Source: Methylohalobius crimeensis 10Ki
Lineage (GTDB): Bacteria > Pseudomonadota > Gammaproteobacteria > Methylococcales > Methylothermaceae
Direction of reading: 5' to 3'
DNA length: 64,000 nucleotides
Assembly (NCBI RefSeq): GCF_000421465.1
Contig: NZ_ATXB01000001.1
Span: 1,302,001-1,366,000 of the forward strand
Shown piece after piece: positions 48,117 through 51,191 of this stretch. Numbering within the stretch: the first letter of the stretch is position 1; the number at the start of each line of letters is the position of its first letter. The position numbers and the translations under genes were made by a program. The notes beneath the pieces were generated by a model. The model was not told where the DNA came from, made no database searches, and was given only the letters and a program-made list of their open reading frames with translations.

Positions 48117-48872
48117 GAGGGTGTACAAATAACTGTGTAACTGGTTATCTGTAATCGACAAGCAGGAGAATGACCAGTGACCAGAATTCAGAAAAAGACC
48201 GACGCCCTGCTCGACGAACTCATCCAGGACTGTAAGAGTCCGGAAGACATTTTGGGCGAACATGGCCTGTTGAAGCAATTAACCCAGCGGGCAGTAGAGC
48301 GCGCTTTTGAGGCAGAGATGGCCTTGCACTTGGGTTACGAGCCGCATGCTCCGGAAGGCCGAGCCACCGGCAATAGTCGCAACGGCAAGGGTAGGAAGAC
48401 CATCCAGAGCGATGCCGGCCAATTTGAGATCGACGTTCCCCGCGACCGCAACGGGAGTTTCGAGCCCCAGCTGGTCAAGAAGCGCCAGCGACGGCTTGAC
48501 GGTTTCGACGACAAGGTGCTGGCTTTGTACGCGCGGGGACAGTCGACCCGAGAGATCCAGGCCCAACTGGAGGAACTGTATGGGATCGAAGTTTCCCCGA
48601 CGCTGATCTCCAACGTCACCGATGCCGTGCACGAAGAGGTCCAGGCTTGGCAAAGCCGGCCGCTGTCGGCCGTCTACCCGATTCTGTACTTCGATGCCCT
48701 ATTCGTAAAATCCCGCCAGGATGGCCCGGTGAAGACCAAGGCAGTTTATTTGGCGCTGAGCATCAACCTGGAAGGCGAAAAGGAGCTGCTGGGCCTATGG
48801 ATGAGTGAGCGTGAAGGGGCCAAGTTCTGGTTCTTGGTCTTCAACGACCTGAAAAACCGCGGGGTCGAAGAC
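48117..48872 (+). mobile_element. left part of an IS256-family insertion sequence, truncated
   Basis: The left end GAGGGTGTACAAATAACTGT (from about 48116) looks like an IS256-family terminus, with the transposase starting 60 bases inside. The element breaks off at 48872 where repeats rich in GAATATTC begin. The right end and about 40 percent of the transposase are missing. Confidence 0.7.
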
Positions 48873-48908
48873 GGAATATTCGGGGTCAAATATTCGGGGT
48901 CAGAGTAA
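48177..48908 (+). pseudogene. IS256-family (Mutator-type) transposase, 3'-truncated
   Basis: The first 232 residues are a typical IS256 transposase: LTQRAVERAFEAEMALHLGYE, the QFEIDVPRDRNGSFEP domain, DDKVLALYARGQSTREIQ, and the first catalytic aspartate in PILYFDALFVKSRQDG. Homology stops after NDLKNRGVED at 48872. The frame then runs 11 codons into repeat DNA and ends at 48908. The second aspartate and the glutamate of the DDE triad are lost, so it cannot be active. Confidence 0.85.
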
Positions 48909-48968
48909 TATTTATCTACTATTACCAGCACATGAAATTGTAATATTGAAACATAAATATTACTCTGA
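48900..48968. repeat. 16-bp inverted repeat just upstream of the group II intron
   Basis: TCAGAGTAATATTTAT at 48900-48915 is perfectly complementary to 48953-48968, around a 37-base AT-rich loop. Copies of GGGGTCA and AATATTC flank the left arm at 48873-48900. The right arm ends in TACTCTGACC, which also begins the exon sequence found after the intron. This palindrome is the likely intron target. Confidence 0.75.
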
Positions 48969-49460
48969 CCGTATGCCGTAACCGGCTGTTTTTCTTGCGG
49001 GTTAAAGTCCCGCGAAAGGAGTTGTCCGTACACCTTTGTAGCGCCCGGAAGCAGCGTCCGAGCAATCGGGGGTTGTAAGTTTCCGAGGGGCGAAGTTGCC
49101 GGCCGTAGCGCAAGCGAACCTACGGGTAGCCTCGTCAATTAGTTGGAGATGCCGACCCTGTGGTCAGAAGGGGAAGGCCGCTGTCGATGGGATGAGAGAA
49201 CGGAAGCGTTCCACCGGATCTCCCGGGGTAGCAGGGGCGGCAGGTAACGGAAGAAAACCAGTGCAGTGCGGGAGATCCGCGGCGGTGGCGGGGCAGAACC
49301 GCCAACGGGTGCGTATAAGGCGAGTGCCGAAGTCGTGCCGGGCCGTCGTGGAAGTCGGAGGGGTCCATACTACCGTTCGAGGACTTGGGACAACACAACC
49401 CGGTCCGAGGGAAGGGGCCCTGCTTTGTTCACGCAACCGAAGAGTGGAGGATCAGGGGAT

Positions 49461-49535
49461 TATTCGCCCCCCTCCCTGGGGCTCACCCCTTCGGGGCCAG
49501 CCTGCAGCTGTTCAAAATCGCTCCCGGCGATTTTG
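49461..49535 (+). repeat. structured repeat element, copy A (inside the group II intron)
   Basis: A 75-base sequence that begins TATTCGCCCC and contains the hairpin CAAAATCG-CTCCCGG-CGATTTTG (49513-49535) and the pairing GGGGCTCACCCCTTCGGGGCC. An inverted copy lies at 50898-50971. The terminal hairpins of the two copies differ by compensatory changes, while the loop CTCCCGG is identical. Confidence 0.78.
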
Positions 49536-49539
49536 TGCC

Positions 49540-50871
49540 ATGGTGCTACGAACCCCGGAAAAGATCAGGACGCTGCAGAGGAAGCTCTACACCAAGGCCA
49601 ATCAGGAGCCGGACTTCCGCTTCTATGCCTTGTACGACAAGCTGTGCCGGGCGGACATTCTGAGTCACGCCTATCGGCGGGTCCGGTCGAACAAGGGCGC
49701 GCCCGGCGTAGACGGGCAGACCTTCGAGGCCATCGAGGCAGAAGAAGGGGAAGCGCAATTCTTGCAACGCCTACAGAAGCAGTTGGAAAGCAAGACGTAC
49801 CAAGCGGACGCGGTGCGTCGGGTAGGGATACCCAAGCCCGATGGCAGCAAACGGCCGCTGGGAATTCCCACCATCCGGGATCGAGTGGTGCAAATGGCGG
49901 CCAAAATTGTCCTGGAGCCGATCTTCGAGGCGGACTTCTGCGAGCACTCGTATGGTTTCCGTCCGAAGCGCTCGGCCCATGACGCGGTGGATGCCGTGGC
50001 GGACGCCCTGTTGAGCGGCCACGCCCAAGTGATCGACGCGGACCTGTCGAAGTATTTTGACACCCTCCCCCACGCCAAGCTGTTGGCGGCAGTGGCCGAA
50101 CGCATCAGCGATGGTGCGGTGCTGGCGCTCATCAAGCAATGGCTCAAGGCACCGGTGGTGGAAGAAGACGACGACGGCACACGGCGGACGAGGGGAGGTG
50201 GCAAAAGCAATCGGCGGGGCACGCCCCAGGGCGGGGTGATCTCGCCGTTGCTAGCGAACCTGTATCTGCATCTTCTGGATCGGATATGGGAACGGCATGG
50301 ACTGGAAACACGCTACCGCTGTCGGCTGGTGAGGTACGCCGACGATATAGTGGCATTGTGCGCAGGGGATGTCGAGGCGCCGCTGGCGGCGCTGCGACAG
50401 ATCTTGGAGAAGCTGGACCTCAGCCTCAACGAGACCAAGACCCGGGTAGTGGATGCTCGCGAGGAATCCTTCGACTTCCTCGGATTCAGCTTTCGCGTGA
50501 AGCGGAGCTGCAAGAGTGGCAAACACTACCCGCACGTGGAACCGTCCAAGCAGGCGGTGCAGCGGATCAAAGATCGCACCAAGGCGCTGACCGACCGGCG
50601 GCGCACCCCGGTTCCGATGCCAATGATCATGGGCGAACTCAACGCCACCTTGCGTGGCTGGTCCAATTATTTCCACCACCGCAACTGCACTCGGGTGATG
50701 TCCAAAGTGAAGCTGCAAGTGGAAGAGCGGGTGCGTATCCACCTGCGGCGGCGTCACAAGCTGGCCAGCCGGGGATATCATCGCTTTCCGGGCCGAATAA
50801 TCTATGGACGTTATGGGCTTTTCAAGCTGCCGACGACGGCGCCCTGGCGCTCGGCGCATGCCTCGGTGTGA
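49540..50871 (+). CDS. ltrA: group II intron reverse transcriptase/maturase
   Basis: A 443-residue intron-encoded protein. The start at 49540 (MVLRTPEKIRTLQRKLYTKA) is chosen because an upstream extension to 49096 reads structured intron RNA. The RT palm/finger blocks are visible: SNKGAPGVDGQTFEAIE, GIPKPDGSKRPLGIPTIRDRVVQ, YGFRPKRSAHDAV, DADLSKYFDTLPH, RGTPQGGVISPLLANLYLH and the catalytic YADDIVALC. The X/maturase region follows with LRGWSNYFHHRN. No C-terminal HNH endonuclease is present. The protein looks intact even though the intron RNA appears damaged. Confidence 0.92.
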   Translation: MVLRTPEKIRTLQRKLYTKANQEPDFRFYALYDKLCRADILSHAYRRVRSNKGAPGVDGQTFEAIEAEEGEAQFLQRLQKQLESKTYQADAVRRVGIPKPDGSKRPLGIPTIRDRVVQMAAKIVLEPIFEADFCEHSYGFRPKRSAHDAVDAVADALLSGHAQVIDADLSKYFDTLPHAKLLAAVAERISDGAVLALIKQWLKAPVVEEDDDGTRRTRGGGKSNRRGTPQGGVISPLLANLYLHLLDRIWERHGLETRYRCRLVRYADDIVALCAGDVEAPLAALRQILEKLDLSLNETKTRVVDAREESFDFLGFSFRVKRSCKSGKHYPHVEPSKQAVQRIKDRTKALTDRRRTPVPMPMIMGELNATLRGWSNYFHHRNCTRVMSKVKLQVEERVRIHLRRRHKLASRGYHRFPGRIIYGRYGLFKLPTTAPWRSAHASV

Positions 50872-50897
50872 AGAACATCGGAAAGCCGTGTACGGGA

Positions 50898-50971
50898 CAA
50901 ATTGGCCGGGAGCCAATTTGAACAGACGCAGGCTGGCCCCGCAGGGGTGAGCCCCAGGGAGGGGGCGAATA
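50898..50971 (-). repeat. structured repeat element, copy B (in the domain V loop)
   Basis: A 74-base inverted copy of the element at 49461-49535. Read on the minus strand it starts TATTCGCCCCC and ends with the hairpin CAAATTGG-CTCCCGG-CCAATTTG. It occupies the place where domain V of a group II intron normally has a GNRA tetraloop. Confidence 0.78.
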
Positions 50972-51097
50972 AAACCGTATGCACGGTTTGATGAGGGAGG
51001 ACAGGCCAACATGACTACGCCTCGGCTAGTGAGGCACCGCCAGACGAAAGAGGCGGCAACAGATAGGTCGGTGCTACGGTAGTGGTAACCTGTCTTC

Positions 51098-51191
51098 TAC
51101 TCTACCCGAATATTCTTACTCTGACCCCGAATATTCTACTCTACCCGAATATTCTTACTCTGACCCCGAATATTCTTGACCCCGAATATTC
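51098..51191 (+). repeat. 39-bp tandem repeats after the intron
   Basis: Two identical 39-base units (51098-51136 and 51137-51175) are followed by a 16-base partial unit to 51191. Each unit joins TACTCTACCCGAATATTC to TTACTCTGACCCCGAATATTC. The first half contains the last bases of the intron (TACTCTAC), so part of the intron end was duplicated together with exon DNA. GAATATTC is itself palindromic and occurs five times in the array. Confidence 0.88.

What the first reader, a model, noticed from the sequence alone, without database searches (positions are those of the whole stretch)
50883..50989. Group II intron whose catalytic domain V loop is occupied by a 74-base structured repeat
The two halves of domain V, AAGCCGTG-TACGG and CCGTA-TG-CACGGTTT, pair perfectly with the expected two-base bulge, but are separated by 79 bases in place of a GNRA tetraloop. 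The domain V tetraloop normally docks into domain I, so the intron RNA is probably crippled unless the insert is tolerated. The maturase gene is still intact, which suggests a recent event or a retained function.
Basis: partly seen in the sequence, partly recalled or inferred. Interest (0 to 1): 0.72.

Follow-up and report, generated by a model that had tools for sequence, protein, structure and literature searches.

The report
Mobile hairpin repeat inside intron catalytic core
A 74-base mobile, hairpin-forming repeat has landed exactly in the loop of the catalytic hairpin (domain V) of a self-splicing bacterial intron, yet a second, nearly identical copy of the same interrupted intron sits at a new target site, so the ribozyme probably stayed active.

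Summary
Domain V (DV, 50883-50989) is 107 nt instead of 33, because 74 nt lie inside its loop. Twenty sister-intron loci all have a 33-nt DV, and no other of 301 genomes of the order has a 60-90 nt insert there. The insert is clean, with no target-site duplication. It is a repeat that also sits, inverted, in domain IV of the same intron (49462-49536), in another group II intron, and in about half of the sampled genomes of the order and 39% of those of the class. Its stems show two-sided compensatory changes.

The 'crippled' reading is not supported. The genome holds a second intron copy with one difference in about 1,980 intron nt. Its left flank is new, its 5' end is exact behind the same target motif, and it carries both repeats (the DV one cut off after 57 nt by a 3' truncation). 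The intron therefore most likely moved after DV was interrupted. In relatives the repeat also rides in-frame beside a catalytic aspartate of a multi-copy transposase.

Best explanation: the repeat forms its own hairpins on an intact DV helix and is tolerated; the loop's docking contact is lost or weakened. No splicing data exist. The repeat's mobilising enzyme is unknown.

The parts
48971..51105 (+). group II intron, complete (GTATGCC...CTCTAC)
   Evidence: Rfam RF02005 at 49004-49238, 72.5 bits; sister introns share both ends; joining 48970/51106 restores the repeat TGACCCCGAATATTC
48898..48970 (+). 5' exon: REP-like palindrome (arms 48898-48915 / 48953-48970), the intron target; only the last 18 nt are shared with copy 2
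49462..49536 (-). 75-nt copy of the repeat, inverted, in domain IV between the AGGGG (ribosome-binding-site-like) and the ATG of the maturase; absent from sisters (GGATCAGGGGATTGCCATG)
49540..50871 (+). intron-encoded reverse transcriptase/maturase, 443 aa, no premature stop; the same protein at 100% identity in copy 2
50883..50896 (+). domain V 5' strand AAGCCGTGTACGG plus one loop G; AGC triad 50884-50886
50897..50970 (+). 74-nt copy of the repeat inserted in the domain V loop; hairpins H1 to H4
50971..50989 (+). rest of the original loop (AAAA) and domain V 3' strand CCGTA-TG-CACGGTTT
50990..51105 (+). domain VI region and 3' splice site, kept as in sisters
51095..51172 (+). 39-nt exact tandem duplication that spans the intron/3' exon junction, so a second TCTACTCTAC|CC stands at 51144

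Best explanation
A small mobile palindromic repeat (about 75 nt, four hairpins, no gene of its own) inserted cleanly into the loop of domain V of a group II intron, and another copy inserted in the opposite direction into domain IV. In the RNA the insert folds into its own hairpins on top of an undisturbed domain V helix (AGC triad, bulge, both helices), so the active site still forms. What is lost or weakened is the docking contact of the loop with domain I, which is helpful but apparently dispensable when the maturase is present. The intron with both inserts then made at least one new copy by retrotransposition into another REP-like target, carrying the repeat along. Shown: the insertion, its empty site, the intact remaining intron and ORF, and two copies with different left flanks. 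Inferred: that copy 2 arose by reverse splicing and reverse transcription rather than DNA recombination, that loop docking is bypassed, and how the repeat itself moves.
For: DV is 107 nt here and 33 nt in 20 sister loci. The exact empty site is in sister L014. No long-loop DV in 300 other genomes of the order. DV and DVI fold the same with and without the insert. Copy 2 at G000:C1:2470355-2472340 has one mismatch (49046) over the intron plus one in the shared 18 nt of target, unrelated sequence further upstream, its intron 5' end exactly behind ATAAATATTACTTTGACC, the DIV insert complete and 57 nt of the DV insert. Sister introns in other genomes sit behind the same TGACC motif. The repeat is a mobile dispersed family: 145/301 genomes of the order, 107/274 of the class, 12 of 20 pairs with two-sided changes. 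Parallels of co-mobility: the same repeat at one site of a different group II intron in G000 and G063 (different families), with the immediate junctions also shared by G027; in-frame beside the catalytic TDNG of a transposase with at least six copies at different sites in G001, uninterrupted in G009. Literature: Ll.LtrB still trans-splices when broken in DI through DV, with some breaks in zeta-zeta' contacts (PMC3410883).
Against: No RNA data. Copy 2 lost its 3' end inside the DV insert (57 of 74 nt remain), so its 3' junction cannot be checked and the full insert in copy 2 is inferred. Only two copies exist, and copy 2 now lacks the rest of DV and DVI. The DIV and DV copies are inverted and could form a long duplex (-140.7 kcal/mol against about -62 for the separate hairpins) that would pull DV out of place. 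The DIV insert separates the ribosome-binding-site-like AGGGG from the ATG. Breaks tolerated in Ll.LtrB trans-splicing are not the same as insertions in cis.
Confidence: 0.7

Rival explanations
1. The intron is dead: the insert in domain V stopped splicing and mobility, and copy 2 is a DNA-level duplication through the short REP homology, or gene conversion spread the inserts between two older intron copies.
For: Copy 2 is truncated; only two copies in the genome; 18 nt of REP homology at the 5' junction; strong inverted-repeat pairing potential; insertions in catalytic regions of organellar introns are associated with loss of self-splicing (PMC4424553).
Against: Homology stops 18 nt upstream, too short for ordinary recombination, and the junction falls exactly at intron position 1 behind the motif that sister introns use. 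One difference in about 1,980 intron nt means the copying is recent, and the ORF has no stop in either copy. Gene conversion would have to cover the whole intron and stop at its first base.
Confidence: 0.22
2. The two inverted repeats were recruited: pairing of the domain IV copy with the domain V copy forms a switch that couples translation of the maturase to folding of the catalytic core.
For: Inverted copies with 89% complementarity bracket the ORF; predicted duplex -140.7 kcal/mol; the domain IV copy lies between the AGGGG and the ATG.
Against: Each copy kept its own hairpin by compensatory differences (H1 stem CAAATTGGC/GCCAATTTG against CAAAATCGC/GCGATTTTG), as expected of two independently inserted family members. 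The arrangement occurs only in this genome (no repeat in 47 sister loci) and is too young to show selection.
Confidence: 0.05
3. The insert removes itself from the RNA (an inner intron, twintron-like), so that domain V is restored before the outer intron splices.
For: The repeat sits in DV, in group II intron cores and in tRNA-like sequences with exact edges, where an RNA-level exit would be useful.
Against: 74 nt with no resemblance to group I or II or any Rfam intron; no GU..AY ends; in the transposase it keeps the frame and is free of stops, so it need not leave; the tRNA-like sites checked are remnants next to intact tRNA genes.
Confidence: 0.03

Closest known systems
Bacterial group II intron retroelements (Rfam RF02005 group-II-D1D4-6, with RT/maturase TIGR04416)
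   Same: All domains recognisable, intact maturase, exact ends, REP-like target used by sisters.
   Different: Domain V loop holds a 74-nt foreign repeat, domain IV holds a second inverted one.
Group II introns with an added 3' 'domain VII' (B.c.I4, B.th.I7 and others; PMC3261151)
   Same: Extra 53-70 nt structured segment; mobility with it was inferred from copies at different sites, the same logic as here.
   Different: That segment lies behind domain VI and became part of splicing; here a dispersed mobile repeat sits inside domain V.
Tn5-fragmented Ll.LtrB (PMC3410883)
   Same: Breaks in loops from DI to DV, including some zeta-zeta' positions, still allow trans-splicing.
   Different: Laboratory breaks acting in trans, not a natural insertion in cis.
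Rickettsia palindromic elements and other MITE/REP-type repeats (review PMC10969869)
   Same: Short palindromic dispersed elements, in-frame insertion into genes (here).
   Different: No sequence relation was tested or claimed; this repeat is a different four-hairpin family, seen here in ribozyme cores, a transposase and tRNA-like remnants.
Rfam RF02902 AaHKsRNA22 (Aggregatibacter sRNA 22)
   Same: Same order of hairpins and the motifs ACAAA..TTTGAAC..GGCCCC..GGGGcGA; weak hit, 23.9 bits, E = 0.013.
   Different: Below the family cut-off (39.8 bits), also in a relative (27.2 bits); a lead only.

Membership tests
Group II intron retroelement | Domain I-IV scaffold recognised by a covariance model | tested here: met
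   RF02005 72.5 bits against 49
Group II intron retroelement | Domain V of 33-34 nt with AGC triad, bulge and capping loop | tested here: inconclusive
   Triad, both helices and bulge kept; length 107 nt and loop occupied; generic Intron_gpII model only 16.1 bits
Group II intron retroelement | Domain VI with branch-site helix and AY 3' end | tested here: met
   Same sequence and fold as in sisters, ends in AC; the branch A itself not tested
Group II intron retroelement | Intron-encoded RT/maturase | tested here: met
   TIGR04416 403.3 bits, RVT_1 and GIIM
Group II intron retroelement | Copies at separate targets sharing the target motif (retrohoming) | tested here: met
   Two copies, new 5' flank, same TGACC| motif; 3' junction of copy 2 lost
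Group II intron retroelement | Splicing activity | not testable with these tools
   No RNA data
Twintron (intron within intron) | Insert is itself an intron | tested here: not met
   No intron family match in the insert; 74 nt
MITE / REP-type mobile repeat | Short, non-coding, palindromic, dispersed in many copies | tested here: met
MITE / REP-type mobile repeat | Target-site duplication (typical MITE) | tested here: not met
   Clean insertion before A/AA in DV and DIV and in the transposase
MITE / REP-type mobile repeat | Known mobilising transposase (cognate IS ends, or a RAYT for REPs) | not tested
   No source element was looked for systematically

The most novel reading that the evidence does not exclude
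A widespread, apparently undescribed mobile hairpin element of this bacterial class inserts without target duplication in front of AA and spreads by riding inside the catalytic parts of other mobile elements (ribozyme domain V, the DDE transposase core) that it leaves active because it folds independently; the window intron is a natural active group II ribozyme with a 74-nt insertion in domain V.
Probability: 0.45. Interest if true: 0.78.

Novelty: new variant of a known kind. Interest (0 to 1): 0.62.

Why it matters
Domain V is the most conserved part of group II introns and the counterpart of U2-U6 in the spliceosome; its capping loop is taken to dock in domain I. A natural intron that seems to have moved with 74 foreign bases in that loop makes the need for this contact directly testable, and points to a permissive site for tagging the ribozyme core. 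The repeat is itself notable: a structured element spread across the class that gets into active sites of mobile elements and is copied with them.

Tried and rejected
Whether the long loop is normal for the class: rejected. Whether the insert is an intron or a known RNA family: rejected or only weak hits. Whether the repeat is specific to group II introns: rejected, it is dispersed. Whether the repeat is plasmid-borne: no match in the plasmid collection. Whether tRNA genes with the repeat in the T- or D-loop could be working tRNAs: aragorn on joined flanks found none, and the loci examined (L183, L186, L188, L210) hold an intact tRNA gene beside the interrupted remnant or nearby. Whether the repeat is described in papers: no held paper contains six of its core sequences and topic searches found nothing; the library is open-access only. 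My first regular expressions for domain V missed most sisters and were corrected.

Full report
Observation. The window holds a complete group II intron at 48971-51105: Rfam RF02005 matches 49004-49238 with 72.5 bits, and an intact 443-aa reverse transcriptase/maturase lies in domain IV. Sister introns share its ends. Joining 48970 to 51106 restores TGACC|CCGAATATTC, which is present intact downstream.

Comparison with sisters. Twenty sister loci, from 83% protein identity down to about 55%, all have a 33-nt DV with five loop bases. Sister L014 carries the exact empty site GTACGGGAAAACCGTATG; adding 74 nt after GTACGGG gives the window sequence letter for letter. No other of 301 genomes of the order has a 60-90 nt insert in this DV. 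So the insert is a derived event, not a class feature. The sisters' loop is not always GNRA-like: several copies in G124 read TTAATAG.

What the insert is. The same sequence, 89% alike and inverted, stands in domain IV at 49462-49536, between an AGGGG and the maturase ATG, where sisters read GGGGATTGCCATG. A further copy sits in another group II intron at G000:C1:1206556-1206630. A covariance model built from 13 copies finds the repeat in 145 of 301 genomes of the order, 38 of 50 genera, and in 107 of 274 genomes of the class. The four hairpins are supported by covariation: 94.6% of cells paired, 12 of 20 pairs with changes on both sides, almost no one-sided change, and no slid version comes near. 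Where an empty site is known, it inserts without target duplication just before A or AA: DV and DIV here, and the transposase. Many copies follow GGTTCG and precede AATCC in tRNA-like remnants.

Is the intron crippled? The decisive item is copy 2 at G000:C1:2470355-2472340, minus strand. It differs by one base in the intron (49046) and one in the shared 18 nt of target. Its upstream DNA is unrelated, and its intron starts exactly behind ATAAATATTACTTTGACC. It has the complete DIV insert and 57 of the 74 nt of the DV insert, then breaks off into unrelated DNA. Both inserts therefore pre-date the copying, and the simplest route to a new target with an exact 5' end is retrotransposition, which needs a working domain V in the moving RNA. 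The reservation is real: the 3' end of copy 2 is gone, so I cannot see its 3' junction, and DNA recombination through 18 nt cannot be strictly excluded.

How it could work. Folding predicts the normal DV helix with the four repeat hairpins as a crown, and the same DVI with and without the insert. In the ensemble the DV pairs keep probabilities of about 0.45-0.6, so local folding is plausible but not certain. The inverted DIV copy could pair with the DV copy far more stably (-140.7 against about -62 kcal/mol); I assume local hairpins win because they form first, which is inference. Published work shows that Ll.LtrB tolerates breaks from DI to DV, with some in zeta-zeta' contacts (PMC3410883), and that introns with an extra 3' domain are mobile with it (PMC3261151). 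That the DV loop docks in domain I through zeta-zeta' is general knowledge, not tested here.

A wider pattern. In genome G001 the same repeat lies in-frame, 25 codons without a stop, directly behind TDNGK, next to a catalytic aspartate of an integrase-core (rve) transposase; the family (IS481-like) and the catalytic role of that aspartate are my reading. At least six copies of that element have different flanks, and G009 has six copies of the uninterrupted gene. A different group II intron carries the repeat at one and the same site in G000 and in G063 of another family, and the junction sequence is shared by G027. So this repeat is repeatedly copied inside other mobile elements. The mobiliser of the repeat is unknown. 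Rfam RF02902 of Aggregatibacter has the same layout, but the match is weak.

Verdict. The 'crippled' reading is less likely than tolerance with retained mobility. It is a new variant of a known kind, with an interesting and apparently undescribed repeat behind it. Organism names of the genome handles are not given by the tools; that the window comes from a methylotrophic gammaproteobacterium is my inference from formylmethanofuran-dehydrogenase-like ORFs and from the named sister introns.

Noticed in passing
L049, L053, L057, L061, L064, L068, L071 (G001); L104, L118, L125, L130 (G009): The repeat is inserted in-frame (25 codons) directly behind TDNGK of an rve/IS481-like transposase; the interrupted element is present at six or more sites in G001 and uninterrupted in six copies in G009.
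   Followed up: partly
L183, L186, L187, L191, L194, L201, L206, L044-L046, L072: Repeat copies sit between GGTTCG and AATCC of tRNA 3'-end remnants; in several an intact tRNA 3' end lies just upstream, as if tRNA 3' ends were duplicated in tandem and then invaded.
   Followed up: partly
L188 (G426), 1430-1700: A tRNA-Ser(UGA)-like remnant seems to carry two repeat copies, in the D-loop and in the T-loop; an intact tRNA-Ser(UGA) lies about 200 bp downstream.
   Followed up: partly
window 51095-51172: A 39-nt exact tandem duplication spans the intron 3' junction and gives two potential 3' splice sites (51105 and 51144).
   Followed up: no
L005/L007 (G000), L144 (G063), L134 (G027), L058 (G002): Another group II intron (RF02001) carries the same repeat at one site in several genera, sometimes in what look like truncated introns.
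   Followed up: partly
L074, L091, L101 (G124), L079 (G276): Sister introns whose domain V loop reads TTAATAG instead of a GNRA-like GAAAA, yet present in several copies in G124.
   Followed up: no
L026, just after 3717: A distant sister intron whose domain V looks shortened (AAGCCGTGCATGGTTTGATGAG), lacking the upper helix and loop.
   Followed up: no
window 48177-48908: A transposase-like ORF (IS256-like by eye) is cut off by the REP-like palindrome into which the intron inserted.
   Followed up: no
L030, L031, L035, L036, L038 (G000): A second GC-rich palindromic repeat family in the same genome (CCCTCCCTGGCCCTCCCCCC...), which shares the CCAGGGAGGGGG motif with hairpin H4.
   Followed up: no
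window 50890-50983 against Rfam RF02902: Weak similarity of the repeat to Aggregatibacter sRNA AaHKsRNA22, which suggests that the sRNA family may be the same mobile repeat in Pasteurellaceae.
   Followed up: partly
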